60,358 nt of DNA, taken from Bacteroidia bacterium. Its GTDB lineage: Bacteria > Bacteroidota > Bacteroidia > Bacteroidales > Prolixibacteraceae. Below, in pieces: positions 4,114 to 25,300 of the stretch; within the stretch, counting starts at the first letter, position 1; every line of letters starts with the position of its first letter. The notes beneath the pieces were generated by a model, which worked only from the letters and a program-made list of their open reading frames with translations, searched no databases and was not told the DNA's origin. A program made the translations under genes and the position numbers. The DNA lies in the NCBI GenBank assembly GCA_026391315.1, contig JAPLDT010000043.1, positions 1 through 60,358 of the forward strand. The letters are read 5' to 3'.

Positions 4114-5379
4114 TTAGACAGTGAATTTGGGTAATTGGCCAAAATTTATGGTAGCGAAATAGTCATCCAAAGTCTCAGCCCTTCTGATTTCTACCACCTC
4201 TCCATTCGTACGCCGCAGCAACTCGACCGAGCGTAATTTACCGTTGTAATTGAAACCCATGGCATGACCGTGCGCTCCGGTATCGTGGATAACCACCAAA
4301 TCCCCTGGCATCATTTTAGGTAAAACCCTGTTAATGGCAAATTTGTCGTTGTTTTCGCAAAGGGAGCCTGTTACGTCGTACATGAATTTAGAGGGATTCT
4401 CTTCATTTGAAAGGACAGTAATATGGTGATAGGATCCATAAAGGGCAGGCCGCATCAGATTGGCCATGGAGGCATCGAGTCCTGCATATTTCTTGTAGGT
4501 ATTTTTGATGTGTAGTACCCTGGAAACCAAAAATCCAAAAGGTCCGGTGATGGCCCTACCTGATTCAAAATAGATTTTCAGCGGATCAAGGCCACTGGCA
4601 ACAATGTACTGCTCATATCCCTTTTTGATTCCACTGCTCATTCTATCGAGATCAACAGCTACCTGATCTGGCTTGTAAGGGATACCAATTCCACCGCCCA
4701 GATTAGCAAACTCGAAACGGATACCCAATGTATGATGCAATTCGACGATCAATTCAAACAGGATGGTGGCAGTTTCGACGAAATAATCCGGGTTCAGTTC
4801 ATTGGAAGCGACCATGGTATGAATGCCAAATCGCGTAATCCCCTTGTCGCGTAAAATTCTGTATCCTTCGAAAATCTGTTCACGTGTAAAACCATATTTT
4901 GCCTCTTCGGGATGACCGATGATGGCGTTTCCCTCTTTGAGAGCACCGGGATTGTATCTGAAACAGACCAACTCAGGCAAACCGACCTGCTCTTCGAGGT
5001 ATTTGATGTGACCAAAGTCATCGAGGTTGATGATTGCACCAAGTTCAATGGCCTTCTTGTATTCGTAGGCCGGCGTGTCGTTCGAAGTAAACATGATCTC
5101 TTCTCCGCGCATCCCAACCCTCTCGGCAAGAACCAATTCTGCCATCGAACTGCAGTCGATGCCAAATCCTTCCTGGCGTAAAATCTTCATTAAAAATGGG
5201 TTCGGAGCCGATTTTATTGCATAAAACTCTTTAAACCCTGTATTCCAGGAGAATGCCTGAACAAATTTTTGGGCATATTCACGCATCCCCCTTTCATCAT
5301 AAATATGAAACGGAGTAGGAAATTTTTCTGCAATTGCTGCTACTTCTTCTTTTGAAAATGGTATTATCTTCTCGTTCAT
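4114..5379 (-). CDS. lysA: diaminopimelate decarboxylase
   Basis: PLP-dependent, alanine-racemase-fold decarboxylase that converts meso-diaminopimelate to L-lysine, the last step of lysine synthesis. The protein has 421 residues from the ATG at 5379. A longer frame from a TTG at 5400 adds only seven residues and runs into a promoter-like -7 box. The PLP lysine is K56 in FYAIKSAPNP. Further fold IV decarboxylase marks are FANLGGGIGIPY, SGRAITGPFGFLVSRV (phosphate and substrate region), GSLCENNDKFA with the subunit-bridging Cys, and DTGAHGHAMGFNYNGKLR. It lies downstream of a dapF homologue on the same strand, separated by a 44-bp hairpin, and near a divergent dapL, so all three fit one pathway. 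Confidence 0.93.
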   Translation of the reverse strand: MNEKIIPFSKEEVAAIAEKFPTPFHIYDERGMREYAQKFVQAFSWNTGFKEFYAIKSAPNPFLMKILRQEGFGIDCSSMAELVLAERVGMRGEEIMFTSNDTPAYEYKKAIELGAIINLDDFGHIKYLEEQVGLPELVCFRYNPGALKEGNAIIGHPEEAKYGFTREQIFEGYRILRDKGITRFGIHTMVASNELNPDYFVETATILFELIVELHHTLGIRFEFANLGGGIGIPYKPDQVAVDLDRMSSGIKKGYEQYIVASGLDPLKIYFESGRAITGPFGFLVSRVLHIKNTYKKYAGLDASMANLMRPALYGSYHHITVLSNEENPSKFMYDVTGSLCENNDKFAINRVLPKMMPGDLVVIHDTGAHGHAMGFNYNGKLRSVELLRRTNGEVVEIRRAETLDDYFATINFGQLPKFTV

Positions 5380-5397
5380 CGTAAAAAATTGAATCCG

Positions 5398-5405
5398 CAA
5401 ATTTA
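5398..5405 (-). promoter_or_regulatory. possible -7 element for lysA
   Basis: The minus strand reads TAAATTTG, matching TAnnTTTG, and would give lysA a very short leader of roughly a dozen bases. It sits between the dapF/lysA hairpin and the lysA ATG, which would let lysA be transcribed independently of dapF. No clear -33 element. Confidence 0.4.
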
Positions 5406-5501: not shown

Positions 5502-6356
5502 TCACCTGAACAGTTCCCGACTAAGTATCCCTGAGGCAATTTCACGAACCTCACCTGTCAGGCGGATGTTCCAATCCTCATCCACCTCAAGTTTCAGAAT
5601 TCCACCAGGCATTTTAACCGAAATGGCCCGATCGGTAAGCCCCTTTTTAACCATAACCGCAGCAATTGCACTCGAAGAGCTACCTGAGGCCTGCGTAAAG
5701 CCGGCACCCCGTTCCCAGATCAGCGCCTCCACTATATCTCTGGAAATAACTTTGACGAACTGTACATTGATCCGGTTGGGAAACATGGGATGGTTTTCGA
5801 TCAGTGTTCCAACCTGTTTGATTTCTTCCTCATCGAGCTTTTCCCTTAGAACAACACAATGCGGATTACCAACTGAAACGCAATGGAAACGGTATTCGTT
5901 CCCGGCAATGGAGACGGGTTCGTTGAAACACTCCTCCTTTGAAAAAGTGACCGGTATTTCAGCGGACCTGAAATTGGCTCTTCCAATGTCTACCCTAATC
6001 ACAAAGGCTTTTCCATCGACCAGTTCAAGGATATGTGCCGTTACGACTCCCCCCAGCGTATCGATGGTAAATTGATGCTTTCCTGTAAATCCATAGTCAA
6101 AGAGATATTTGGCAAAAATCCGGAGTCCGTTTCCACTTTTTTCGGCTTCGGAACCGTCCGGATTGAAGATACGAAGTCCAAAATCGGCTTTCACGGTAGG
6201 TACTTTGAGCAAAATTCCATCAGAGCCAATGCCTAAGTGGATGTTGCACAACTGGATGATTCGCTCTTTGGTAAGTTCAAAATCGATCGCTGTCTGATCA
6301 AATACAATGTATTCGTTTCCAAGTCCATGCGATTTAACAAAGAAATTCGTCTCCAT
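5502..6356 (-). CDS. DapF-family protein with both catalytic cysteines replaced by serine
   Basis: This 284-residue protein has the double alpha/beta fold signature of diaminopimelate epimerase: SHGLGNEYIVFD at 9-20, GSDGILL, FNPDGSEAEKSGNGLRIF at 64-81, VGNPHC near 162 and ERGAGFTQASG at 215-225. In characterised epimerases (LL- to meso-DAP) two Cys residues take the proton off opposite faces of the alpha carbon, in CGNGxR and ACGxGAC. Here both positions are Ser (S74, S224), the Glu before TQA is Phe, and the second loop reads ASGSSSSA. I checked both codons on the DNA (AGT and TCA). Its place between dapL and lysA argues for a role with DAP. The changes argue against the usual thiol mechanism, so either the chemistry differs or the function does. 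I withhold the symbol. Confidence 0.85.
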   Translation of the reverse strand: METNFFVKSHGLGNEYIVFDQTAIDFELTKERIIQLCNIHLGIGSDGILLKVPTVKADFGLRIFNPDGSEAEKSGNGLRIFAKYLFDYGFTGKHQFTIDTLGGVVTAHILELVDGKAFVIRVDIGRANFRSAEIPVTFSKEECFNEPVSIAGNEYRFHCVSVGNPHCVVLREKLDEEEIKQVGTLIENHPMFPNRINVQFVKVISRDIVEALIWERGAGFTQASGSSSSAIAAVMVKKGLTDRAISVKMPGGILKLEVDEDWNIRLTGEVREIASGILSRELFR

Positions 6357-6604: not shown

Positions 6605-7846
6605 ATGGCAAGAATCAACGAAAATTACCTGAAACTGAAAGCTGGTTATCTATTCCCCGAAATTGGACGGCGCGTACGCGAATTTGCAAAGGCAAATCCC
6701 GATAAAGAGATCATCAAAATGGGCATCGGGGATGTTACGCAACCCCTTACACCAACTGTGATCAAGGCATTTCATGAAGGAGTTGAGGAGATGGCCTCAG
6801 CCGCCACCTTCAAAGGCTACGGTCCAGAACAGGGTTATGAGTTCTTGCGCGAGGCGATCGCCAAACACGATTATCATGCCCGTGGCGTTCAAATCTCACC
6901 AGATGAGATATTTGTCTCCGACGGATCGAAGTGCGACACCGGAAATATTCAGGAAGTCTTTGGAAGTGAGAACAAGATAGCGATTTGCGATCCGGTTTAT
7001 CCGGTCTATGCCGATACTACCGTGATGTCCGGTAAGACAGGACTCTGCCAGTCGAACGGGTATTTTGACGGTATTGTCTACATGCCTTGCAACGAAGGGA
7101 ATGGATTTCTTCCCGAACTCCCTTCAGAAAGACCTGATCTCATCTTCCTATGCTTCCCCAACAATCCTACCGGGACAGTCGCCTCCAAAGAGGTACTGAA
7201 GAAATGGGTAGATTATGCCATGAAGAACAAATGCATTATTTTATATGATGCTGCCTATGAAGCATTTATAACAGACCCAACGATTCCCCACTCTATTTTT
7301 GAGATTGAAGGAGCCAAATCTGTGGCCATTGAATTCAGAAGTTTCTCCAAAACGGCTGGTTTTACCGGAACGCGTTGTGCTTTTACTGTTATTCCGGACG
7401 AGTTGATGGCCTACGATGAGGCTGGTAAGCCACATCAGGTAAAACACTTGTGGATGCGCAGGCATACCACCAAATTCAACGGTGTCTCGTACCCCGTCCA
7501 AAAGGCGGCGGCAGCCATCTATTCGGCAGAGGGGGCAAAAGAGGTCAAAGCAGTAATTGAATATTACCTCGAAAACGCCCGCATCATGATAGAGAGCCTG
7601 AAGTCACAAGGCTTTACTGTCTTTGGAGGAATTAATGCACCTTATGTTTGGGTGAAAACAAAAAACGGGCTTACCTCCTGGGAATTTTTTGACATTTTGC
7701 TCAACGAGGCAAATGTGGTTGGAACACCGGGATCGGGCTTCGGACCTTCCGGTGAAGGATATTTTCGCTTCTCTGCTTTTGCAGAAAGGGAAAATGTGCT
7801 GAAAGCAATGGAGCGGTTGAAGAAATTGGAAAATTGGAAAATGTGA
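6605..7846 (+). CDS. dapL: LL-diaminopimelate aminotransferase
   Basis: PLP-dependent class I/II aminotransferase that converts tetrahydrodipicolinate to LL-diaminopimelate in one step, replacing the dapD-dapC-dapE branch. It has 413 residues, the usual length. Visible marks are [20 protein letters not shown] at the N-terminus, GIGDVTQPL near residue 41, [10 protein letters not shown] near 129, FPNNPTGT near 184, and the PLP lysine K249 in [12 protein letters not shown]. The product must be epimerised to meso-DAP before LysA can use it. That makes the Ser/Ser DapF homologue across the divergent promoter region puzzling. Start is an ATG; the alignment at the N-terminus supports it. Confidence 0.96.
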
Positions 7847-10220: not shown

Positions 10221-10817
10221 TTACCTGAATTTAATGCCCAGCGTAACATTGACCGCATTCTTCCAGTTTAATTGCTGCATATTTGCATCCACCGAGTTAT
10301 TGAGGTTCGCTGAATAGCGAACATCGAGTGTTACAAAACCTAAAACATCAACACCACCGCCGAATTGCAAATCGAAATTACTTTTCTGTCTGGTAAAGTA
10401 AGGTAATGGATTGGACTCATTCAGGAAAAAAGAGCCTTGAGGCCCAGCCATCACATGTGCACTGATAATGCCCAGATTCAGTAGTCTTAACCCAACCATC
10501 ACCGGCACCTTCACGGTATTAACCTTTGTCTCAATAGGAGCAGCGCTAGAAACGGAATAAGTCTCTTTGTGAGTTGCATAATAAAATTCGGGTTGCAGGT
10601 ACAATACCCTGCCAAACTGGAAGAAGATACCAAACTGTGAGTTGGAATCAAATTGGGTCTTAATGGAATTTTGATCAATGGTTGGAGTAGCCAGATCCAA
10701 ACCAATTTTAGGACCAAACCAAAAATTTCGTTTCGATTTTGAATCATCATTTTGTGAGGAAACAGAGCCAGAGATGAGCAAAAGTGCAAATAGCACCAGA
10801 ATTAAGTTCTTTTTCAT
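10221..10817 (-). CDS. outer-membrane beta-barrel protein (PorT/OmpW-like)
   Basis: A 198-residue exported protein. The signal peptide covers residues 1 to about 21 (LILVLFALLLISGSVSSQ). The mature part alternates short hydrophobic beta strands (NFWFGPKIGLDLA, FGIFFQFGRVLYLQPEFYYA, VPVMVGLRLL, NFDLQFGGGVDVLGFVTLDVRYSANL) and ends in an aromatic or basic strand (VNVTLGIKFR). This is the pattern of the 8-stranded outer membrane beta-barrel family common in Bacteroidota. The function is not assigned. The next gene upstream on this strand is 88 bp away, so co-transcription with the FISUMP lipoprotein is possible but not shown. Confidence 0.82.
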   Translation of the reverse strand: MKKNLILVLFALLLISGSVSSQNDDSKSKRNFWFGPKIGLDLATPTIDQNSIKTQFDSNSQFGIFFQFGRVLYLQPEFYYATHKETYSVSSAAPIETKVNTVKVPVMVGLRLLNLGIISAHVMAGPQGSFFLNESNPLPYFTRQKSNFDLQFGGGVDVLGFVTLDVRYSANLNNSVDANMQQLNWKNAVNVTLGIKFR

Positions 10818-10905: not shown

Positions 10906-12183
10906 CTAATTTTTAAGGCACCTGACAGAAAGGCCATATTTGAGGTTAACAAAACTTTTGGTTATGGTTCCATTTCCATAATACATGTATCTATAATTGG
11001 CAACATTGGTTAATGCTGGGGTTGTACTCCACCAGTTACCATAGTTTCCTATATTACTGTATATTCCGGAGTCGGTACGATAACCGCCAGGTAACGCAGT
11101 AAAACCTGACAAATTGCTTGCCAGCGCATTTGGGACCGTCCAGTTGAGCACGCCTATCTCCTTCAGTTTTCCTCCTGCGACCGACTCTCCGCCAAGGAAA
11201 GTTGATAAAGTTGTCCATTCTGCATCTGAAGGCACATGCCATCCTGTAGGACACAACTTACCCGAACTTGCGGCATACCAGTTGTATAATGCGCCGTATC
11301 TGTTCTTGTTAGCTATCTCATCGTCATTGTACCAGCAGTATCCTGGGTTAATCTGATTGCTCCAGGTTGTACTATTGTCAGCCAATGGAATGGTTGTGCT
11401 GTCTCTGTCTCTGGTAGATCTCAAATTTTCAGTCATCCAAACTTGTGATCCAATGGATACAAAATGATAAAAATTTCCATCTTTGTCTTTCACCAGTAAC
11501 TTTCCTGTTGAAAATGTGCGTTCAGTGCCATAACCAGTACCAATAGTATTAGTAGCATAAGCCCTAAGGTAATAGACAGCATCTGGAGTCAGGTTGGAGA
11601 CGACACTTGAAAAACTCCCATCCCCCGATCCATCTGAAGTAAAAGAATCTCCAGTGGTAGGATTTTTTGAGGTACTCCAGCATACTCCCCTTGCGAAAAC
11701 CGCTGAACCACCATCTCTCGAAACAGTACCACCTGAGCTAATGTCAGTTTCACTGATAGCTGAAACAGCTAATGTTGAAACATTGGGAATAGTCGCAGAT
11801 ATTATAGCAGAGACCTGGTTGCCATAACCTGTTCCTGCACCATTTGTGGCATATGCCCTGATATAATAGGTTGAGCCCAGCATTAAACCGGAAATTATGC
11901 TGTTAAAAATCCCTACTCCTGCCCCATCAACAGTTGTACTGTCCTTGAATTTTATAGTCGGATTTTGTTTCACGCTCCAGCAAACACCACGGGAAATAAT
12001 TGAAGAACTACCTTCAGAGGATATATTACCTCCGGTATCTACAGTTGTGGCCGCGGTGTTTTTTACCGCCAATGAAACAAGGAGAGGTACCTCACTTACC
12101 TGGCTTTTCTTGCAGTTGTAGGCAAAAACCAACAAAAAAATTATTGTCGTAGCTATATGTCCTATTTTTATTGGTTTTTTCAT
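10906..12183 (-). CDS. FISUMP-domain lipoprotein with two Fn3-like repeats
   Basis: A 425-residue lipoprotein: a hydrophobic N-terminus, then FAYNC24KK, a plausible though imperfect lipobox. Two repeats of about 95 residues follow (40-135 and 135-225). Each carries RGVCW and ends in YYIRAYATN or YYLRAYATN-G-TGYG, an Fn3-like pattern frequent in Bacteroidota surface proteins. From about 228 to the end is the 'Fibrobacter succinogenes major paralogous' domain: DGNFYHFVSIGSQVWMTENL, YGALYNWYAA, CPTGWHVPSDAEW, ALPGGYR, WWS and S-V-R-C-L-K-N. The domain is probably carbohydrate- or surface-related, without proven function. It lies beside the T9SS pair and may belong to the same surface programme. 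Confidence 0.88.
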   Translation of the reverse strand: MKKPIKIGHIATTIIFLLVFAYNCKKSQVSEVPLLVSLAVKNTAATTVDTGGNISSEGSSSIISRGVCWSVKQNPTIKFKDSTTVDGAGVGIFNSIISGLMLGSTYYIRAYATNGAGTGYGNQVSAIISATIPNVSTLAVSAISETDISSGGTVSRDGGSAVFARGVCWSTSKNPTTGDSFTSDGSGDGSFSSVVSNLTPDAVYYLRAYATNTIGTGYGTERTFSTGKLLVKDKDGNFYHFVSIGSQVWMTENLRSTRDRDSTTIPLADNSTTWSNQINPGYCWYNDDEIANKNRYGALYNWYAASSGKLCPTGWHVPSDAEWTTLSTFLGGESVAGGKLKEIGVLNWTVPNALASNLSGFTALPGGYRTDSGIYSNIGNYGNWWSTTPALTNVANYRYMYYGNGTITKSFVNLKYGLSVRCLKN

Positions 12184-12322: not shown

Positions 12323-13273
12323 TTAAAAATATCTAGGCGTAAATCTGCAAAACCGTTTCCGTTTGACAGGAAAATCATAGCTAAGCATGAATTCATGGGT
12401 GCCTGCATTGTATTGAGAGGGACGGAAAGAGGTAAGATCATAAGCATAGCCAAGTTTAACGCCTCTGTTAACATAAATTTGAAAAAGAAGTCCATAAGAA
12501 TTTTGCATGCGGTAAGTGGCACCAACCCATACCCGTTCATAAAATAGCGCGTTAGCTGAAAAGTCAATCACAGTTGGGGTGTTCTGACTCCATCTTGCCA
12601 GAACGGTAGGTTTGAATTTTACATTGTCGGCAATGTCGAGCACATATCCCCCCATAAAATAAAAATTCATCTCCTCCCGGTATACTGTCTCACCACTGTT
12701 AGAGTTGATTTTGTTTTTAAATATTTTAGGAACCGAAGCACCCAGGAAGAAATTGTCGGCATGCCACATGAATCCTACGCCAAAATTGGGTAAATACTTT
12801 TTGTTGATGTCAAAAGCGACAACAGGGTCATTAGGGTCATGAACACTCAAATCGGTAAGCAAGGCTTCGTACCTGTTAAATCCACCCTTGATCCCAAACG
12901 ATATGTACTGGTCCCCTTCCAGTAGAACACGGTAGGAATAGTCGGCATAGACCCCATTTTGCCTGACCGGTCCAAACCTGTCCGTAATAATGGAGAGCCC
13001 CAATCCGACGTTGTACTTTTTGAATGGTCCCTGAATTGTGAAAGTGTTTGTATTTGGAGCCCCATCGAATCCAACCCACTGAATCCTGGATAAAGCCGTA
13101 ATATTCACATATCCCGACATACCTGCATAAGCAGGCTGAATCGTCAAAAGATTGTTCATATATTGGTTAAATACCGGATCCTGCTGGGCATTGGCACTGA
13201 GGGGAAATGCCAGGAAGAAAATCCCAAGCACTGCGTATGATAAATCCTTGAATATTTTGTTGTTCTTTTTCAA
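12323..13273 (-). CDS. PorP/SprF-family type IX secretion outer-membrane protein
   Basis: A 316-residue outer-membrane protein with a signal peptide to about residue 28 (FFLAFPLSANAQ) and the family start QQDPVFNQYMNNLLTIQPAYAG. Beta-strand segments typical of PorP/SprF follow (YNVGLGLSIITDRFGPVRQNGVYADYSY split over two strands, FGVGFMWHADNFFLGASVPKI, LSYDFPVKRK near the end). In gliding bacteria SprF is needed to move the huge adhesin SprB to the surface. Homologues sit next to proteins with a type B C-terminal sorting domain, exactly as here, with 33 bp separating it from the giant gene. The start codon is TTG, because no ATG precedes the signal peptide. It is most likely co-transcribed with the giant gene and dedicated to it. 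Confidence 0.93.
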   Translation of the reverse strand: MKKNNKIFKDLSYAVLGIFFLAFPLSANAQQDPVFNQYMNNLLTIQPAYAGMSGYVNITALSRIQWVGFDGAPNTNTFTIQGPFKKYNVGLGLSIITDRFGPVRQNGVYADYSYRVLLEGDQYISFGIKGGFNRYEALLTDLSVHDPNDPVVAFDINKKYLPNFGVGFMWHADNFFLGASVPKIFKNKINSNSGETVYREEMNFYFMGGYVLDIADNVKFKPTVLARWSQNTPTVIDFSANALFYERVWVGATYRMQNSYGLLFQIYVNRGVKLGYAYDLTSFRPSQYNAGTHEFMLSYDFPVKRKRFCRFTPRYF

Positions 13274-13306: not shown

Positions 13307-16300
13307 TCAATAATAGACATAAAGGTACCCTTTCATTGTTTGACCGCCCGGTCCGCCTAATTTAAGTATATAATAATAGACCCCTGGTGCAACAAGTTGG
13401 TTTTTAGCAAAGTTGGACTCCGAATAACGGCCATCCCAGGCATTCTCAGGCAACTCGTAATTGTTACTTTGGAATACCAGTTGCCCGGATCTCGTGAAAA
13501 TCAGCAATTGCGTATTTTGATAATTCTTTGAGGTCAATCCATCAATAACAAACTTATCGTTCACCCCATCCCCATTGGGTGATATCAGTTGGGGAACAGT
13601 CGGAATTTCTTTGACATAGATCCGCTGGGTACAAGTATCCATCAGCCCCATCTGATCGGTGACCGTCCAGACCACTTTGGTCAAACCTGTCCTGAATTTT
13701 ACAGGGGCATCGTTGACAATAGTATCGACAGCGCAATTGTCATAAGCGAATGGTTTCCCAAGATCGACCATATACTTGTTGGGATCTGTTGATTTAATAT
13801 ATTGCACTGTCAATTCAATATCCTTAGGACAAGTAATCGTTGGCGGTGTAACATCCAGGACATTGATGAATACGCTGTCTTGCTGAACACATCCCTTCGA
13901 GCTGGTTAACGTAACTTTGTGCCACAATGCAGTCAGTCTTAATGCTTCCCTGGTTGTTTGGACAGGTACGGTATGCCAAAGGTATTTGTAGCTGTTCAAT
14001 AAAGCCACATCGGTACTACCATTAATAGTATCAACCCGGGCACTTCCGTTCGCATCACTTAAACATTGGATCGATTTTTTTACAAACCCAACCTTGATCG
14101 GCGCCGGTTCAGAAATCTCTCCGGTGAAAGCTGCGCTGCACATTTTAGCATCCTTCACTACGACCGTATAGACGCCTGCACGCAAACCTGTGGCTGTAGC
14201 GGCTGTCTGCAATGGCGTTGTACTCCATTGATAGCTGAAAGGTGCTGTTCCCATGGTAATGTTGACAGTCAGGGTTCCGGCGGAATCACCCGGACAATTA
14301 AGCTGAGGAGAGGCTAAGATACTGGCTCGCAGCGAATCGGGCTGACCTACGGTTACCGGTTGAATATCCCAGCATTTACCACTGGCCGTTGCACCCTTAA
14401 TGAAATAAAGACCTGAGGCAACAGCAGTTGGCGTTGTTACAGCTGTGGTTGCCTTAGCATCAGACCAATAGGTAAATAACAATCCTGCCGTCGAACCTGC
14501 CGTAACCTGAGGAAGGGTCAAATCAGCCGTTACACCGGAACAGGATTTAAGCACAACGGTATTGGTCAAAACTTTGGGACTCCCTACCACTTCAATATTA
14601 AAAGAATTTTTAATGTTGCAAATTCCGGAGTAAGTATAAGCTATCGGATGTATACCAACATTAGCCACTGCCGGATCAAAAGTATATCCGCTTGTACTAT
14701 TGCCACTGATACCGGTCCCTGACAGCACTACTCCGGAAGGAGAGACTGAGAGAGCAACTTTGGAATCATTAACACAATAAGGGCCATACGTTCCGTTGAA
14801 TTTAACTGATGTAACAATCAGGTTCAATTGAGCAGTACTTGAGCAACCCGCAGAATTGGTCACTTTTAATGTATACAGACCAGAATTGATGGACCTGATG
14901 TTGGTAATCACCGGTGGATTCTGATCAACAGAACTGAATCCGTTCGGACCTGTCCATTCATAGGTAAAGGTTTCAGTAATTCCAACAGGACCGCCCTGCA
15001 ATACTACATCACTACCTTCACAGATTGGGTTCACATTCGGGCTCATCGTTATGGATGCGTTTTGTGGATTACCCATGGTAACCGTTGTTGAAACAGTCGG
15101 AGGTGTACAGCCTGCGTTATCGGTAACTGTAAGGAAATAGTCTCCCATGTTTGCTCCAGTAACGTTATTGATCGTTGGGAATTGAAGATTCGAGGTGAAT
15201 CCTGCCGGACCCGTCCATTTGTAGCTCTTCATTCCGGAGGGAGCAGCTTTCAACCTAAGGATATTTCCGAGACAGATCGGATCAGATGATGCTATAGGCT
15301 TCAAAAGTTCAACAACTATGGTATCGTTAGCAGCACAGTGATTAACCTTATCGACGACTGTCAGGATATATTTCCCGGCCACCGGTGTTGTAATCGGAAG
15401 CGGATTCTGGAGATTAGAATTATACCCGTTCGGACCTGCCCAGGAATAGGAGAACATGTCGTCAGGACCACCTTGAAGTTGCAAGATACCAGCCTGGCAA
15501 ATTGGTGTATTGGCTTGAGCAAACGGTTCGGGCAATGGATTAATGATCACATTGACGGTGCCAACTGATTGAATTCCTTTATTATCTGTCACAGTCAAGG
15601 TGTAAACCCCTTCATTTTTCACTGTGACGTTATCAATAAAAGGATTTTGCAAAGCAGACGTAAATCCGTCCGGACCCGACCAGTTGTACGATTTCATGTT
15701 ATCAGGCCAGCCGGTAAGTACGAGTGTACCTCCCATGCAAACTTGCTGGAACCCGGCACTGGCTGCGAAGATCACGACCTGGGTAGTTACTGTTGTGGCG
15801 CAGCCTGTTGAAATGGATGTAACAGTCAGCTTATATGTTCCGGCATCCGAAGCTATTACACCAGGAATTGTTACGTTGCCATCCGAAGGTGAAAAGGTCA
15901 ATCCTCCAGGAGCCGTCCACAAATAGGTGAAATCTGTACCTTTGGGGCCGCCGTTCAAATGCAGGTCACTCCCCAAGGTTAAAGGAGTATTTGTGTAAGC
16001 AGTCGCTTTCGGAGGTGTACTGATGGTCAGTTTAACGGGTGTACGGACACTTTCACAATGTTTGACGGATGACTCCTGGTAAGCCGCCAGATAGGTTACC
16101 GTACCAACCTTACTCAATGTTGGCGGTCCGGTCAGCGCCACTCCTGTTGTATCATACCACACCAGGGTCCAGCCGGCAATAGGGATAATGGCCGTGTTGG
16201 CATCCAATGTTTGGAGAGGCGATTTTTCACATTCACCGATATCTCCCTTCTTTACCGGTGTTGGCGGGGTTTTCTGGATGGTCATCTTCACCGCCGTTCT

Positions 16301-19300
16301 TGTAGCGCTTGGGCAATTCGAGCTATTTCTTGCCTCGGCATAATAGGTTTTGGTCCCCACAAAAGTGATGACAGGAGAAGCTACCTCAAACCCATTAACA
16401 GGTTGATCAAACCACTTGATGGTGATGGTAGGATCCGGATTGTTGATGGCGCTGTTGGCATTGACCGGCAGGGAAGATTCGCAATCAATGATGTCGCCGG
16501 TACTGACCGGGGCGCCTGGCCGATCGTTTAGGGTCAGCGTCACTTTGGCGCGATTCGCACTGATACAGCTACCAAGCAATGCAGAGGCATAATAAGATTT
16601 TGTCCCTATCTGGTTCCAGGTAGGTGATGCTACAATATTCCCGCCTGTAAGTGCATCATACCATGTGATGGTTACTCCTGCCGGAGGTGTTACAACATTC
16701 GCAGTCAGTGTCTGAATCGGTGTATCCGCACACGCTGTCAAGTCAATTGCAACCGGATCTGCCGGATTCGGATTGACAGTTAACATCACTTTTGTACGGG
16801 TCGGGCTCTTACATCCGGTTGCATAATTTGCCTCGGCATAGAGGGTCCTGTCGCCGGGGGTTATTTGAATCGGTGAAACTTCAAGTCCATTGGTAGCGGA
16901 GTCATACCATTTGATGGTCGTCCCGGGAGCAATATTAATAGCGGTATTCGCATCAAGTCCGGTAGCCGATGCGCAGGCAGTCAGATGATTACCAGAAGCT
17001 CCGATTGTCGGGGCAGCAGGTACAGGGTTTATTGTCAGGGTTACCTTTGCCAAGTTGGCGCTCACACAAGTGCCCAATCTCGCCTCGGCCCAGAAGGAGA
17101 TGGGTCCTCCAACGTAGTTCAATATTGGAGAGGTAACAATAGTGTTGCGGGTGGCACTGGTGTACCAGACAATGGTTGCACCGTCAACCGGCGTCAATAC
17201 CGCCGCCCTTAATACCTGAACCGGATTTTGAACACAATCTGTCAAATCACCTGCACTAACCGGATCTAAAGGTTTAGGATTAATGACAACTGTAACGGCT
17301 GTGCGTGTAATGCTCTGACAGCCTGTAACCAGATCGACAGACCCTGCATAATAGGTGGTTGGTCCAGTCTCACTTACACTTGGATTGTGATCCAATGGTT
17401 CCCCACCGGTCGGTACAGTAAACCATTGTACCCCGGAGCCAGCCGAAATGACTCGGGTAAGCATATTGACCGGAACCAAAGGCGAATCCTGACAGACGGT
17501 CAGGGTTCCCTTGCTTTTGGGTGGCTGAGGCACAGGATTGATCTGAAGCAGTATTGGAGTCCTGGGTAATACACTTTTGCAACTGCCGTTATCAGCTTCC
17601 GCATAGTAGGTTATCGATCCTACCACATTGAGTGTCGGACTTACTGAAGCTCCGCCGGTTGCAGTTCTGTAATACCAGACTGTGGCGCCATCTGGAGAGG
17701 TGGCAGACGCTGTGAGGGTCTGAACCGGACTTGTTGCGCACAGGATGATATCTCCGTTACTTATAGGGGATTGCGGAACAGCTTTTATTTCAAGTGTTTG
17801 CGGGGTTCTGGTTAGGCTTCTGCAATCAGTTAAAGTATTTCTTGCTTCCGCGTAATAGGTTACTTTACCTGGTCCGCTAAGCATAGGGGCCGGGGAAATC
17901 GCCGATCCTCCAATCGATGAGGCATACCAGATGACATCCATGCCCAATGGTACTGAAGCAGATGCAGTGACTGGAATACCATCGTCACACTTGGGCAGCG
18001 GATTGGTGACAACAGGTGGCGCAGGAGCAGGATCGATAGTCAGGATCACCGGAGTACGGTCCGTGTTGACACAGTTTCCATTGTCGGAGCCTGCATAATA
18101 GGTAATGGTACCTGCCGCATTGAGCGTTGGGGATACGACAGGTAAACCACCAACAGCAGCTGTAAACCAGTTAACGGTAGAACCATCAGATGTTGTTGCT
18201 TTGGCTATCAGGGTCTGCATCGGACTTTTTTCACATTCCCTGACATCTCCCAGACTGACAGGTTTAACAGGCTTGGCATTTATGGTCAACTTAACAGGTG
18301 CAGAACGTGTAAGGCTCACGCAGGAGGTCGCAATGTTGACGGCCTCGGCATAGTAGATTATCGTTCCAACACTGCCCAAAATGGCATTGGTTACTTTTGT
18401 CCCTCCTGAAGCAGAAAGATACCAGCTTACCGAAATTCCCAGTCCTTGCGGTCCTACCTGATCATCGGCTTTCAATACGGTGGCAGGGGTAGTCTCGCAG
18501 ATGGTCTTATCTCCCAGGCTTACAGGGGGAGGTGGGGCGGGATTAATCTGCATGGTGACTGCCGTTCTTGTCAGACTTGCACAGACACCATTGTCAGCTT
18601 CGGCATAATAGGTTGCTGTGGTAACGGCATTGAGGGTCGGGGTTGGGATTGGCAGACCACCTGAAGCGGCTGTATACCATTTCACTGTCAGGCCCGGAGG
18701 CACAGTGGCGCTGGCCGTTAGTGTCTGTAGTGGGCTTTTTTCGCACTCTGTCGCATTCACGCCAATTGGCGCAGCCGGATGCAGGATAATGTTGATTGTA
18801 ACAGCAGTTCTGACCAAACTGGTACAATTGGTCACAAGATCTTTGGATGCGGCATAATAGGTTTTGCTCCCGAGGGCAGACCAGGAAGGAACAACCACCA
18901 GTCCGCCTGAAGGCTGATCATACCAAACAACAGTAGAACCGGCAGGGGCAGTCGCGGTAGCAGTATAAGTAACCGGGACAGCATCCAGGCACTGGGTGAT
19001 GTCTCCACCAGAGGTCGGAGGGACCGGAGCAGGGTTGACCGTCAGTACAACCCCTGCAGATCTGGTAAGACTGGTGCAGATACCATTGCTTGCTTCGGCA
19101 TAGAAGGTTTTGGTTCCCGGACCGCTCAAAGTAGGACTTACCGGCGCTCCTCCTGTAGGGGCGTTATACCAGATGAGTGTAGTACCCGGAGCAGTAGTAG
19201 CTGTTGCTGTAAGTGTTTGGGCTGGTAATTGCTCACAGGCCGTAATATTGCCCCCGGCAACAGGAGCGGGCGGATTGTCGCTAATGGTCAGCTTGACCGG

Positions 19301-22300
19301 AGTCCGTATTAGGCTTAGACATCCCGTTACATTATTCCTTGACTCTGCATAATAGGTAATGGTACCGATAGCATTTAAAGTAGGTAAGGCAACCAGATTG
19401 CCACCAACAGGAGCATCATACCAGAAGATTGTCGTCCCTGCAGGCGTGGTCGTTATGGAAGCCGCATTCAAAACTGGAATCGGACCGCCATTCAAACATT
19501 GGGTAAGGAACCCGCTGCTGGCAGGCGCCGCCGGCGCAGGGTTCACCACAACGCTGATCGAATTAGATGCCGCACTTGAACATCCTGTCAATGGATCAGT
19601 CACTACAACACTGTAATTTCCAGAAGTGGTAACCAGATTTGTTTGTGTCGTTGCTCCACCCGGCGACCATAAATAGTTGAATCCTGCCAATGGTCCTACC
19701 AACAATACACTTCCGCCTTCGCAGAAGGTAGTAGGGCTACCGGAAGCAGTGATGACAGGAGTGGAAGGCTTGCTGTTAACCGCGATGGCTTTTGTGGCAG
19801 TCGGACCGTTGCCACATCCGTTGGTCGCATAGACTGTCACATTTCCGTTCATGGAAGCAAGTCCGAAATCAACTGTAATACTGTTGGTCAGCGGTGGAAC
19901 AGAGGTTATCGTAGCACCGGATGGCACTGTCCAAATATACCCGGTTGCTCCGGTTACAGGTGTTACAGTGAAGATTAAACCGGTACTTCCCTGACAAATG
20001 GCCGTGTTTCCACTGATGCTTCCCGGATTAGCTGGAACATCGCTCACAACAACCGGCAAAGTGGAAACTACCCCATTTCCACAACTGCTTGATCCATAAA
20101 CTGTAATATTCCCAGAAACAGCTCCTGGACCAAAAGACACATTGATCGTATTGCTGTTTGCACCTGAAACAATTGAAATACCTGCAGGCAGACTCCAGTT
20201 GTAACTGGTGGCTTGCGGAATAGGTAAAACAGAATAAGTGGCAGTTGTTCCCTTGCACCTGCTGCCGGCTGGACCAGATATGACACCTGGGTTTCCGGGT
20301 ACAGCATCCACCTGTATTAGCATAAAATCTGAGACGGTTGAAGCACATGGGTTGAGCGCATCAACCGAAAGCGTCAGTTTGACTGTATTGCCAACATCAG
20401 CAGCCCCGGGATGATAGGTTGGATTAAGGGTGTTATTGCCCGTCAACGTACCGGTACCATTGTGTGTCCAGACAGGATTCTGGTAATTTGTGGCAGTACC
20501 ATTGATCGGTAAGGTGGCCGGATAACACAAATTATTATCAATTCCTGCATTGACAGTCGGAAGCGCCCTGATGGTCAGTATAAGATTACCCTGAACAGTA
20601 GTCACACACGGTGGAATGCTGTATGCAGTGAGCGTTAATGTCACTACACCTGTGGCTTGATCCAGCGCACTGGGAACATAAATTGGAGAAAGAGTCGTGT
20701 TATTGATAAATGTTCCAGTACCGGATGAACTCCAAACAAAGGACGAATAATTGGTTGCAGTTGCTCCGGTAATATTGAAGTTATTGCCAGAACAGATAAG
20801 TCCGTTACTTCCGGCATAAGCAGTAGCTATAGGAAGAACCGATGTTGTGACAGCCGTAGATGAGGCGCTTTGGCAACCATTGGCATCTTTAACAACAACA
20901 GAATAACTACCTGCCATAGAGATTGTTACATTCTGCGTTGAGGCACCGTTAGACCAAAGATAGCTACTATAACCAGCTGGAGCAGAAAGGACAATATTTC
21001 CTCCGGAACAGAATGAGACAGGTCCGGGAGGTGTAATTACCGGAATCGGAGGTGTCGGATTCACTGTAACAGTTACATTGTAGGAATTTCCGGGACAACC
21101 GCTGGCAGTTAAACTGTAACCATATGTGACAACCACAGGAGCGTTGGTTGTATTGGTCAGCACTTCATTGACATCTCCTGCCCCTGAATTGGCAGGTTGC
21201 AAAATTCCAGGCGTACCAGCCCTTGTCCAACTAAAAAGTGTACCTACCGTTCCACTGGTAGCCGTATAATGAAAATTTGAACCACTGCAAATGTCGGGAG
21301 CATTCAGGCTACTTGTTAAAACCGGTTCAGGATTAACTGTTACAACCACATTTTGAGTATTTGTACAACCCCCGGCTGAAAGCGTATATTGGTAAGTTAC
21401 AATAACTGGCGAAGATGAAGAGTTGGTCAGAAATTCACTAATACTCCCGGCACCTGATGATGTAGCTTGTACAATTCCGGGTACTGAGGCCCTTCTCCAG
21501 GTCATCAAGACACCGACAATGGCGCTTGTTGGTGTATAATTAAACAAATTGCCACTGCAGATGGCGGCAGGAGTAAGTGTACTGCTTAGGGATGGCGCCG
21601 GATTTACTGTTACAATTACAGTGTATGTAGATGGATTGACACAACCTCCTGCCGAGAGGGAATATACATAAGAAACACTGATTGGTGATGTTGTCGTATT
21701 GATCAATGTCTCATTAGGATTATTAACCCCTGACGAGGCTCCATTGGAAATACCTGCCACAGTTGAACGGCTCCAGTTAAAGAGCGTTCCGGGAGTTAAA
21801 CTTGTCGGTACATAACTAAACAAAGTACTGCTGCAAATAGCGGCGGGGGTTAGACTGCTTGTTAAGGCCGGTATTGGATTGACAGTTACCAGGACATTGT
21901 AGGTACTGGTACATCCACCTGATCCCAGCGAGTATACATAAGTTACCACTACCGGAAGCGCTGTTGTATTGGTCAAAGTCTCATTCGGATTGCCTGGTCC
22001 ACTGCCTGCCACATTGCTTATTCCCGGAACTACCGCACGACTCCAGTTGAATGTGACTCCTGGTGTAGGACTTGTCGGAATATAGCTAAACACTGATCCG
22101 CTGCAAACGGCAGGCGGAGTGAGGGTACTGCTCAATGTCATTGCAGGATTAACCACAACCTGAACATTGTATATACTTGGATTGGTGCATCCGTTGGCCG
22201 ACAAAGAATAGGCATAAGTAACGGTTACCGGTGAACTGGTTGTATTAATCAGCGTCTCGTTTGGATTACCTGTTCCGGTTGACGATGGATTGCTGATGCC

Positions 22301-25300
22301 GGCAACTGCTACCCGACTCCATGTGAAAACTGTGCCTGCTGCCAGACTTGCAGGAGTATAACTGAATGGAGATCCACTACATACTGCCGGAGGGCTCAAA
22401 CCACTTGTCAATGTCGGGAACGGATTAACTGTTACTGTTACAGAATATGTGGTTGGGTTGGAACATCCGTTTATACTTAATGTGTAAACATAAGTAACCA
22501 CGATTGGAAGGGCCGTCGTATTAACCAAAGTCTCGTTCGGATTACCAGTGCCACTGTTAAATCCATTGCTGATACCTACAACAACCGCTCGTGTCCAGCT
22601 AAAGGAGGTGCCCAATGTTGAACTGGTAGGACTATAACTGAATACCGAACCGCTGCAAACAGCGGGAGCTGTCAGACTACTTGTCAATTTAGCCGTTGGA
22701 TTAACTGCTACCACGACATTCTGCGGATTATTACAACCCCCATTGCTCAAAGTATAAACATAGGTAACATTGATCGGAGCATTACTCGTATTCACCAATG
22801 TCTCACTGATATTTCCTGCCCCTGAAGAGGCAGGATTGCTTATGCCGGCAATTGCTCCCCGGCTCCATGCAAGGGTAACACCTGATGTTGCACTAGTGGC
22901 TGTATAGCTAAACAGATCGCCGCTGCAAATAGCTGGAGGTGTCAGTGTACTGCTCAGAATTGGAGTAGGATTGACTACCACCAATACGGTAAAGGTGGAA
23001 GGATTGGTACAACCATTGGCCGAAACAGTGTACAAATAAGTTACAGTAACAGGTGAGGATGTCGTATTGATAAGCGTCTCATTTGGATTACCGGTTCCAC
23101 TGGCCAAAGCATTGCTGATACCTAACACAGCTGCCCGGCTCCAGGTAAAGAGTGCTCCCGAAGTTGAACTCGTTGGAGTATAATTGAAAACCGAATTGCT
23201 GCATATGGCTGCAGGGGTAAGACTGCTTGTAAGAAATGGTCTGGGATTAACCGTAACCGTTACATTCTGGACATTGCTGCATCCGTTGGCGCTAAGGGTA
23301 TATACATATGTTACTACAACCGGAAGTGCCGAAGTGTTGGTCAGCGTCTCGTTGGGGTTACCCGTACCACTGCTTGATGCGTTGCTGATACCGGCAACCG
23401 CTGTTCGGCTCCAATTGAAAGTAGCTCCCGGGGTCAGACTAGTCGGTATATAACTAAATATTGACCCACTGCATATGGCAGGCGGAGTCAGAGTGCTGCT
23501 TAGCGTCAGTGATGGATTGACCGTAACAGTTACATTCTGCGTATTACTGCAACCATTGGCACCCAACGTATAAACATAGGTCACAACAACAGGTGAACTG
23601 GTCGTATTGACCAAAGATTCGTTCACATTTCCGGCTCCGCTGGCTGGTGCATTACTAATCCCTGCAACTGCTGCACGGCTCCAGGCAAAGATAGTGCCCG
23701 TCACAGAACTCGTGGGAGTATAACTGAAGTTCGTACCACTGCAAATTGATGGCGCTACCAAACCACTGGTCAGCGTAGGCGATGGATTTACGTTTACATT
23801 GACCGCATAGGTGGATGGGTTGGCGCATCCATTGCTGCTCAAAGTGTAAACATACGTCACAACAATTGGCAGAGGGGTCGTGTTGACAAGTGCCTCGTTG
23901 GGATTGTTTGTTCCACTGCCTATTGCATTACTGATACCAACTACAACCGCACGTGCCCATCCAAAGGTAGTGCCTGCAGTTAAACTGGTTGGGGAATAAC
24001 TGAATACTGATCCGCTGCATACGTCAGGTGGCGTTAAGCTACTGGACAGGGTAGGAGTAGGATTAACTGTCACAACTACGTTATAGGTTGTTGGATTGGC
24101 ACATCCGCCAACTAAAACTGTATAGACATAAGTTACCGCAATAGGTGCTGAGGTAGAATTAACGAGTACCTCGTTTGGATTATTTGTACCACTTGAAGCA
24201 ACATTGGATATGCCTGGAACAACTGCCCTGCTCCAGCTGAAAGTAGCCCCAACTGTGGAACTGGCAGGGGTATAGCTGAAAATAGTATTGCTGCAAATAG
24301 CTGGTGGCGCCAGACTGCTTGTAAGGGAGGGTAAAGGATTTACAACTACCGTGACAGAGTAAGTAGTTGGATTGGTACATCCGTTCTCTGAAAGCGTGTA
24401 AAGATAAGTTACAGTAACAGGAACCGTGGAGGTATTGATTAAAGTCTCATTGGGATTATTAATTCCAAATGAAGAAACATTGCTAATACCAGGTACAGCG
24501 GCCCGGCTCCAGTTAAAATTAACCGCCGCAGATGAACTGGTTGGAATATAGCTGAAAACGGTATTGCTACATATGGCCGGAGCTGTTAAAATACTTGTTA
24601 AAACAGGAGTTGGATTGACCCGGACCACAACATTCTGATTATTGGTGCATCCGTTGGCTGATAATGTATATATGTAAGTTACATTGATCGGATTTGCAGT
24701 AGTATTAACCAAAATCTCGTGAGGATTATTGACCCCGGATGCACTGGGATTACTGATTCCTACTACAACCGGACGACTCCAGTTAAATGTAGTCCCTGTT
24801 GTTGCACTCGTGGGCAAATAATCAAAGAAGGTATTGGTACATATATCGGAAGGGGTTAATGTACTATTTAAAACAGGCAGTGGTTCAACTGTAACGATAA
24901 CATTCTGAATGTTTGTGCAACCTCCATAAGTCAATGTAAATACATAAGGAACATTGATTGGAGAAGTAGTAGTATTTGACAATATCTCAGCAGGATTACC
25001 GGCACCACTATTTGCAGCGTTGCTGATACCGGGGATGAATGCCCGACTCCAGCTGACCGTTGTACCGGGTAAAGATTCTGTATGGTTATAGACAAAAATA
25101 GTATTACTGCATATGGAGATCGGACCCAAAGAACTGGTCAGTACGGAAGATGGAATGACATTTACCTGCACAGAATAGCTGGAAGGATTAGAACATCCAT
25201 TAATACTTAAAGTATAAATATATGTGACCGTAACCGGAAGGGCAGTCGTATTGATCAAAGTTTCATTAATATTTCCAACCCCACTTGCCATCGGGTTACT

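What the first reader, a model, noticed from the sequence alone, without database searches (positions are those of the whole stretch)
5502..6356. DapF homologue with Ser at both catalytic Cys positions, inside a lysA/dapL block
Both Cys-to-Ser changes are visible in the DNA (AGT for S74, TCA for S224), and the Glu of the ERGAGE motif is Phe. In known DAP epimerases these two thiols carry out the reaction. DapL next door makes LL-DAP, which must be epimerised before LysA can act. Either this protein is a working epimerase with another pair of bases, or it has a new task (for example binding DAP, or acting on a related amino acid) and another epimerase exists elsewhere. In the related proline-racemase fold, Ser or Thr at one of these places changes the reaction, so a shift of function is plausible. 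Two coordinated losses in a full-length, intact gene speak against simple decay.
Basis: partly seen in the sequence, partly recalled or inferred. Interest (0 to 1): 0.72.

Follow-up and report, generated by a model that had tools for sequence, protein, structure and literature searches.

The report
Lysine-pathway epimerase lacking its catalytic cysteines
A conserved group of bacterial enzymes that probably flips one end of the cell-wall and lysine precursor diaminopimelate has serines where its studied relatives use two essential cysteines, so it may do hard acid-base chemistry in a way not yet described.

Summary
The 284-aa minus-strand gene at 5502-6356 is a full-length DapF homologue (TIGR00652, 230 bits) with Ser74 (AGT) and Ser224 (TCA) at the two catalytic Cys positions, between lysA and dapL. 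It is not decay: I found 66 distinct Ser/Ser proteins in five phyla, with one Ser codon family per site (AGY at 74, TCN at 224); dN/dS against congeners is about 0.05, and all ten DAP-contact residues checked are kept. The genome shows no other DapF, no DAP dehydrogenase, one alanine-racemase-type gene, and a DNPR-type MurE. Of 40 Ser/Ser genomes searched, 35 have neither a Cys/Cys DapF nor Ddh. Ser/Ser dapF lies beside three different LL-DAP aminotransferase families. Best reading: a working LL/meso-DAP epimerase with a Ser/Ser dyad (0.7), untested biochemically. Against it: three Desulfosporosinus genomes also carry a canonical DapF, Cys changes impair known DapF enzymes, and the one Cys-less relative in the passages I read (Ser/Thr, proline-racemase family) is a dehydratase. 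Whether Ser/Ser arose once or twice is open. A new variant of a known kind, directly testable.

The parts
5502..6356 (-). dapF homologue, 284 aa, Ser/Ser type
   Evidence: TIGR00652 230 bits, PF01678 x2; AlphaFold2 model pLDDT 94.4, best PDB match 9mro_A, TM 0.89
6135..6137 (-). codon of Ser74 (AGT), at the position of the first catalytic Cys
   Evidence: alignment to 9mro Cys75, codon; helix 75-87 begins just after it
5685..5687 (-). codon of Ser224 (TCA), at the position of the second catalytic Cys
   Evidence: alignment to 9mro Cys224, codon; helix 225-238 begins just after it
5697..5699 (-). codon of Phe220; Ile in 9mro; aromatic in 72 of 77 Ser/Ser rows, Glu in the 5 Chloroflexota rows
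6138..6140 (-). codon of Lys73, beside Ser74; Lys in 72 of 77 Ser/Ser rows, Met in the 5 Chloroflexota rows
4114..5400 (-). lysA, diaminopimelate decarboxylase homologue, 428 aa
   Evidence: TIGR01048 275.6 bits, a little under its curated cut-off 297.9; the same type (70-72% identity) is also in the Cys/Cys genomes G008, G010, G030
6605..7846 (+). dapL, LL-diaminopimelate aminotransferase, 413 aa
   Evidence: TIGR03542 623 bits, cut-off 364.7

Best explanation
The gene encodes the cell's LL- to meso-diaminopimelate epimerase, a DapF-type enzyme that works with two serines in place of the two cysteines. DapL next door makes LL-DAP. This protein inverts one alpha-carbon. LysA (next door) and the meso-DAP-type MurE use the product. 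Proposed chemistry (inferred): the fold and the DAP pocket are those of DapF. Ser74 and Ser224 sit at the N-termini of two helices that, in DapF, face the two sides of the alpha-carbon. Helix dipoles, the backbone amides of Gly75-Asn76 and Gly225-Ser226, and the conserved His166 and Glu215 make one serine basic enough to take the alpha-proton, or make it relay the proton to Glu215, His166 or a bound water, while the other serine donates a proton from the other face. Shown here: homology, fold, residue conservation, purifying selection, sole-copy status, absence of Ddh, gene linkage. Inferred: that it turns DAP over, and which groups are the bases.
For: Only one PF01678/TIGR00652 gene in the 4.69-Mb genome (111 contigs, given as 100% complete). 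No Ddh over cut-off there; the best hit is 35 profile positions at 3.4e-4. One Ala_racemase_C gene, in an 829-aa open frame, so no sign of a PLP-type DapF2 (PMC9026213, passages). MurE over cut-off, with a DNPR motif (meaning of the motif recalled). Panel of 61: 57 have exactly one DapF: 22 Ser/Ser, 33 Cys/Cys, 1 with Cys74 and the second site off the contig, 1 Cys/Ser; none has two. Ddh over cut-off in 0 of 22 Ser/Ser genomes. Of 18 further Ser/Ser genomes, 15 have a single DapF over cut-off and 2 have Ddh. All ten non-catalytic DAP contacts named for Anabaena DapF in the passages I saw (PMC12039745) are kept in 77 of 77 Ser/Ser rows, the Thr as Ser or Thr. They include the positions whose Ala mutants nearly abolish C. 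glutamicum DapF (PMC5296763, passage; position matching mine). Ser/Ser dapF is adjacent to three different LL-DAP aminotransferase families: TIGR03542 (window; in L072 with lysA between), NF004937 (L162, 671 bits over 585), NF006756 (L093, 593 over 507); a dapA lies upstream in L082. Purifying selection, dN/dS 0.04-0.08 in the five of six pairs where it could be computed. Given Ser, the codon is always AGY at 74 and always TCN at 224 in 66 of 66 distinct proteins, while 227 and 228 mix both Ser codon families. Precedent for Ser as one of the two groups: a Ser93/Cys hydroxyproline epimerase (PMC4113996, passages; the Cys is printed as 255 in the text and 236 in a legend).
Against: No activity data. 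In DapF, changing one catalytic Cys to Ser hinders catalysis and is used to trap the enzyme (PMC12039745, passage); C83A or C221A almost abolish C. glutamicum DapF. [quoted passage not shown] The Ser/Thr member of the related fold is a dehydratase. Three of three Desulfosporosinus genomes searched carry canonical DapF plus the Ser/Ser copy. Two of 18 non-panel Ser/Ser genomes have Ddh. G019 (Ser/Ser, 84% complete) has no DapL over cut-off, best 65 bits. Lack of every known route is not proof of an unknown one: G052 (96% complete) has neither DapF nor Ddh over cut-off. Five rows nested in the Ser/Ser clade have Cys at 74. Recalled, no call: E. coli dapF mutants grow and build LL-DAP into the wall, so lack of a working DapF is not strictly lethal there.
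Confidence: 0.7

Rival explanations
1. The Ser/Ser protein no longer epimerises. It binds DAP or performs another reaction (for example a lyase or dehydratase on a DAP-like compound, or acts as a regulator or scaffold), and an unrelated, unrecognised epimerase makes meso-DAP.
For: Both catalytic thiols are absent; Ser/Thr in the related fold gives a dehydratase (PMC4113996, passages). Desulfosporosinus keeps a canonical DapF beside the Ser/Ser copy in 3 of 3 genomes searched. G000 has a second Asp/Glu-racemase-family gene (C52, 226-aa open frame, 56 bits).
Against: The DAP contact set is conserved. Ser/Ser and Cys/Cys exclude each other among the 57 panel genomes with a DapF, and Ser/Ser dapF often lies beside dapL or lysA. 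One Ala_racemase_C gene and no PF05544 in G000. The extra PF01177 gene is not shared: the five other same-genus genomes searched have one PF01177 match each, which I take to be MurI.
Confidence: 0.2
2. No epimerase is needed: LL-DAP is used directly by an altered LysA and MurE, and the Ser/Ser protein is a relic or an LL-DAP binder.
For: The window LysA scores under the curated TIGR01048 cut-off (275.6 against 297.9). LL-DAP walls exist in some bacteria (recalled).
Against: LysA type does not track DapF type: window-type LysA (70-72% identity) occurs in Cys/Cys genomes G008, G010, G030, and the Ser/Ser genomes or loci of L052, L068, L072, L094 carry a different LysA at 28-32% identity to the window's. 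MurE has the DNPR motif. A relic would not show dN/dS near 0.05 with one Ser codon family fixed at each site.
Confidence: 0.06
3. Pseudogene or sequencing artefact: an ordinary dapF that lost its cysteines in this assembly.
For: Active-site loss is a usual sign of decay.
Against: Intact frame; the same residues in 66 distinct proteins from five phyla, including named isolates (Maribellus, Mariniphaga, Rhodocytophaga, Desulfosporosinus); dN/dS about 0.05.
Confidence: 0.01

Closest known systems
Diaminopimelate epimerase DapF (EC 5.1.1.7; TIGR00652; e.g. 9mro, Arabidopsis 3ejx, H. influenzae 1bwz, C. glutamicum 5m47)
   Same: Length, two PF01678 domains, fold (TM 0.89 to 9mro_A), the ten non-catalytic DAP contacts checked, gene context with dapL and lysA.
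   Different: Both catalytic Cys are Ser; residue 220 aromatic (Ile in 9mro, Glu in many others); Lys73 beside the first Ser in most members.
H. influenzae DapF C73S and C217S mutants (2q9h, 2q9j)
   Same: Each carries one of the two Ser changes in a DapF fold; both are in the hit lists.
   Different: Laboratory single mutants; Cys-to-Ser there hinders catalysis (PMC12039745, passage). The window protein is a natural double Ser kept over long evolution.
Proline racemase superfamily members with catalytic Ser (Ser/Cys 4-hydroxyproline epimerase; Ser/Thr trans-3-hydroxyproline dehydratase; PMC4113996)
   Same: Related fold; natural Ser at the first catalytic site; one of them is still an epimerase. 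The paper also says that some clusters of that superfamily lack one or both Cys (passages).
   Different: Different family (PF05544) and substrates; no Ser/Ser epimerase is described in the passages I read.
Histidine racemases HisR and CntK, and O-ureidoserine racemase DcsC (7vdy)
   Same: DapF-like fold; show that the fold can change substrate.
   Different: They use a pair of catalytic Cys (HisR from PMC11602996 passages; CntK and DcsC recalled).
DapF2, PLP-dependent DAP epimerase proposed in Staphylococcus (PMC9026213, passages)
   Same: Another replacement of canonical DapF in a lysine gene cluster.
   Different: Alanine-racemase family, unrelated; only one Ala_racemase_C gene in this genome.

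Membership tests
DapF (TIGR00652, EC 5.1.1.7) | Full-length match over the curated family cut-off | tested here: met
   230.1 bits against 114.65, residues 6-278
DapF (TIGR00652, EC 5.1.1.7) | Two-domain DapF fold | tested here: met
   PF01678 twice; model pLDDT 94.4; best match 9mro_A TM 0.89
DapF (TIGR00652, EC 5.1.1.7) | Two catalytic cysteines | tested here: not met
   Ser74 and Ser224
DapF (TIGR00652, EC 5.1.1.7) | DAP-contact residues other than the Cys pair | tested here: met
   N14, N65, G75, N76, N164, N197, E215, R216, G225, S226 present; kept in 77 of 77 Ser/Ser rows, position 226 as Ser (69) or Thr (8)
DapF (TIGR00652, EC 5.1.1.7) | Pathway setting: supplier of LL-DAP and users of meso-DAP in the genome, no bypass by Ddh | tested here: met
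   dapL, lysA, MurE with DNPR present; no Ddh over cut-off
DapF (TIGR00652, EC 5.1.1.7) | Epimerase activity on LL/meso-DAP | not testable with these tools
   needs an enzyme assay
Bifunctional DapF / glutamate racemase (NF038284) | Match over curated cut-off | tested here: not met
   65.2 bits against 350
Proline racemase superfamily (PF05544) | Match to the family model | tested here: not met
   Pfam scan gives PF01678 only; PF05544 finds nothing in G000
PLP-dependent DapF2 | Alanine-racemase-type gene additional to Alr in the genome | tested here: not met
   one Ala_racemase_C gene in G000, in an 829-aa frame

The most novel reading that the evidence does not exclude
Ser/Ser DapF proteins are working amino-acid epimerases with no catalytic thiol: a cofactor-free 1,1-proton transfer at an unactivated amino-acid alpha-carbon run by a serine pair, or by a relay through Glu215, His166 or water. 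They replace Cys/Cys DapF as the sole DapF in members of several phyla, perhaps from two separate origins, and one Bacteroidales line regained a Cys at the first site. A possible gain is freedom from the redox switch seen in C. glutamicum DapF.
Probability: 0.6. Interest if true: 0.8.

Novelty: new variant of a known kind. Interest (0 to 1): 0.62.

Why it matters
[quoted passage not shown] A conserved, sole-copy Ser/Ser enzyme would show that the fold can take an alpha-proton without a thiol, would test directly how such enzymes lower the barrier, and would mark a natural class that thiol-directed inhibitors and oxidation should not touch. If it proves inactive, the genomes that carry it hide an unknown DAP epimerase or use LL-DAP, which is also worth finding.

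Tried and rejected
Decay or artefact: rejected. Bypass by Ddh: no Ddh over cut-off in this genome or in any of the 22 panel Ser/Ser genomes; not rejected for Enterococcus sp. CU12B (G062) and one Opitutales genome (G070), which have Ddh. Replacement by PLP DapF2: one Ala_racemase_C gene in G000. Replacement by a proline-racemase-type or Asp/Glu-racemase-type enzyme shared by Ser/Ser genomes: PF05544 in 6 of 30 genomes searched (3 of 18 Ser/Ser, 3 of 12 Cys/Cys), not in G000; the extra PF01177 gene of G000 is not in the five congeners searched.

A special LysA that goes with Ser/Ser: rejected, LysA type does not follow DapF type. Lys73 as the new base: not general, the 5 Chloroflexota rows have Met. 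The nearby Cys229 as replacement: not general, it is Ser in 21 and Thr in 5 of 77 rows, and Ser in the window protein. Glu220 loss as a sign of altered function: rejected, 9mro has Ile.

Single origin of Ser/Ser: the quick tree gives it (SH-aLRT 85), but trees that place the Chloroflexota rows with Cys/Cys rows fit as well or better (log-likelihood 9.24 and 0.90 higher, p-AU 0.668 and 0.527), which also shows that the free search was incomplete. One or two origins is open; one search needed no test. The tree tool warned of long branches. Regain of Cys74 (Cys/Ser rows nested in Ser/Ser) rests on that quick tree alone. DNA tandem repeats in the giant ORF: none found. Paper searches for a natural Ser-type DapF found no report in their listings; the library lacks most subscription journals, so absence from print is not shown. 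No paper was read whole: passages, one section or listings only.

Full report
WHAT IS THERE. The frame 5502-6356 (minus strand, 284 aa, ATG start) is a full-length DapF homologue: TIGR00652 at 230.1 bits, cut-off 114.65, PF01678 twice. Of 17 solved sequences matched, 16 are named DAP epimerase and one O-ureidoserine racemase. Its two catalytic positions hold Ser74 (AGT) and Ser224 (TCA). It lies between lysA (4114-5400, minus) and dapL (6605-7846, plus; TIGR03542 623 bits). An AlphaFold2 model (37-row alignment) has pLDDT 94.4 and pTM 0.89; helices 75-87 and 225-238 begin right after the two serines, as in this fold, where the catalytic residues head two central helices (PMC11602996, passage). 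Foldseek puts 9mro_A first (TM 0.89, 37% identity), then Arabidopsis DapF and H. influenzae C73S.

A CONSERVED CLASS, NOT DECAY. A scan of genome contigs with the window protein returned 66 loci. With the panel loci this gave 123 aligned proteins: 77 Ser/Ser, 38 Cys/Cys, 5 Cys/Ser and 3 cut at one site. The 77 are 66 distinct proteins, because panel and scan overlap. The set is not a random sample, as the scan query was itself Ser/Ser. Ser/Ser members occur in Bacteroidota (Prolixibacteraceae, Rhodocytophaga, others), Desulfosporosinus, Opitutales, a Gloeobacterales MAG, an Enterococcus record and Chloroflexota. The main motif is close to NPDGSEAEKSGNG[LIV]RIF with ERGAG[FYW]T(L/Q)ASGSSS(C/S)A; the Chloroflexota form is EMSGNGIRLF with ERGAGETLSSGTGSTA. 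Given Ser, the codon is always AGY at 74 and TCN at 224 in 66 of 66, while positions 227 and 228 mix both Ser codon families. dN/dS of the window gene against five congeners is 0.04 to 0.08 with near-saturated dS; a sixth pair had infinite dS. A DNA pattern for the main motif, which finds 71 of 73 members of that form and none of the other 50 rows, matched 2 of 395 genomes across the phylum, one of them the window's own. So the form is rare and patchy; the pattern does not see the Chloroflexota or Cys/Ser forms.

IT STANDS IN FOR CANONICAL DapF. In 61 relatives (the window's genome included), 57 have exactly one DapF: 22 Ser/Ser, 33 Cys/Cys, 1 with Cys74 and the second site off the contig, 1 Cys/Ser. 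Both forms occur among genera of the window's own family, never together. Four have none: G003 and G031 (85-86% complete), G037 (which has Ddh) and G052 (96% complete, no Ddh over cut-off). Ddh passes its cut-off in 8 of 61, none Ser/Ser. MurE passes its cut-off in 19 of 22 Ser/Ser genomes; G025 has a part, G002 and G034 only weak Mur-family hits. DapL (TIGR03542) passes its cut-off in 18 of 22 Ser/Ser genomes and is found in part in 3 more (G004, G005, G025), against 12 of 34 Cys-type genomes over cut-off. The genomes behind 21 further loci were searched too: 18 are Ser/Ser, of which 15 have one DapF over cut-off and the three Desulfosporosinus genomes have a canonical one as well; Ddh is in 2 of the 18. 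So 35 of 40 Ser/Ser genomes show neither a Cys/Cys DapF nor Ddh. All 51 genomes searched have a LysA-family match, 31 of them over the cut-off. The window genome's single Ala_racemase_C gene is in an 829-aa frame, which I take, from recall, to be the MurF-Alr fusion usual in Bacteroidota. It has no PF05544 match.

SUBSTRATE SIDE. The non-catalytic contacts to a DAP analogue named for Anabaena DapF (PMC12039745, passages) map to N14, N65, G75, N76, N164, N197, E215, R216, G225 and T/S226, and all ten are kept in 77 of 77 Ser/Ser rows. In C. glutamicum DapF, Ala at N15, N74, N85, N159, N194, E212, R213 or T223 almost abolishes activity (PMC5296763, passage); I match these by motif to the same positions. 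Conservation of the distal DAP site speaks for DAP as the substrate.

GENE LINKAGE. Of 57 Ser/Ser (or half-cut Ser) scan loci, 36 have dapL at 70% identity or more and/or a lysA within the fetched flanks (20 dapL; 27 window-type lysA; 3 other lysA); 5 more have only a weaker aminotransferase match (26-30%), four of them Chloroflexota. Many flanks are cut by contig ends. In L068, L072 and L094 the block is dapL, lysA, dapF with a different LysA type (28-30% identity to the window's; L072 tested: 371 bits). In G159 the Ser/Ser dapF is followed, under 100 bases on, by an NF004937 LL-DAP aminotransferase (671 bits, cut-off 585). In Chloroflexota L093 it is followed by an NF006756 one (593 bits, cut-off 507). 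A dapA (TIGR00674) lies upstream in Desulfosporosinus L082. Other loci (for example L052, L074, L076, L083, L086 and L079-L082) gave no blastp hit to the window's LysA or DapL in their flanks. Three different LL-DAP aminotransferase families beside the same odd epimerase is the best context evidence for the step LL-DAP to meso-DAP. The same dapF-dapL adjacency is seen for Cys/Cys dapF in seven of the eight relatives L003-L010.

HISTORY. On a quick tree of 93 rows built without the catalytic columns, Ser/Ser plus Cys/Ser is one side of a branch (SH-aLRT 85). The main clade of 42 Ser/Ser and 5 Cys/Ser rows has 99. The five Cys/Ser rows form one group (100) inside a 37-row part of it, mostly Bacteroidota (95). 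That reads as a regained Cys74; one such genome has Ddh (G065), another (G040) has none over cut-off. The link of the Chloroflexota rows to the main clade is not firm: placing them with Cys/Cys rows fits as well or better (p-AU 0.668 and 0.527).

MECHANISM AND PRECEDENT. In the proline racemase superfamily a natural Ser/Cys pair still epimerises hydroxyproline, a Ser/Thr pair dehydrates, and some clusters lack one or both Cys (PMC4113996, passages). A review explains why Cys is favoured over Ser (PMC8142540, passages). I saw no Ser/Ser epimerase of this fold in the papers listed by my searches. C. glutamicum DapF is redox-sensitive, with oxidised and reduced structures (PMC5296763, start of abstract in the listing; PDB titles); that the oxidised form is a disulfide of the catalytic pair is recalled. 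Loss of thiols could be a gain under oxidation, but this is speculation, since many carriers look anaerobic (recalled).

VERDICT. Observation confirmed. Most likely a working Ser/Ser DAP epimerase (0.7). I do not file it as a canonical DapF, because the defining Cys pair was tested and is absent; I say it works like one. What the second copy does in Desulfosporosinus is unexplained.

Noticed in passing
L079, L081, L082 genomes (G071, G072, G073): Three Desulfosporosinus genomes carry both a canonical Cys/Cys DapF (311-322 bits) and a Ser/Ser DapF (237-239 bits); in L082 the Ser/Ser copy has a dapA upstream. Its separate role is unexplained.
   Followed up: partly
L069, L070, L071, L091 and L031 (G040): Cys74/Ser224 DapF in Bacteroidales, nested inside Ser/Ser on a quick tree, with further changes near the site (NTDAS, AENCGNG, Asn or Tyr at 220); the genome of L070 also has Ddh.
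   Followed up: partly
L064 (Enterococcus sp. CU12B): A Ser/Ser DapF 60% identical to the window protein in an Enterococcus record whose genome also has Ddh and LysA: transfer from Bacteroidota or contamination.
   Followed up: partly
window 13307-30247, minus strand: A 5646-aa open frame made of many similar modules, with a C-terminal stretch (PNGDGVND) like gliding-type surface proteins (recalled); a PorP/SprF-like frame (recalled) lies next to it at 12323-13273. No DNA-level tandem repeat was detected.
   Followed up: no
window 4114-5400, minus strand: LysA of this family scores below the curated TIGR01048 cut-off (275.6 against 297.9) and is only 28-32% identical to the LysA of some other Ser/Ser genomes; G000 has a further LysA-like gene on C84 (222 bits).
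   Followed up: partly
L161:1625-2299 (G000 contig C52): A 225-aa PF01177 (Asp/Glu racemase family) protein beside what looks like a GntR-type regulator, with no NCBIfam match; no second PF01177 match in the five congeners searched.
   Followed up: partly
window 10906-12183, minus strand: Protein with a C-terminal stretch like the 'Fibrobacter succinogenes major paralogous domain' (recalled), beside a small frame at 10221-10817 that looks like an outer-membrane protein.
   Followed up: no
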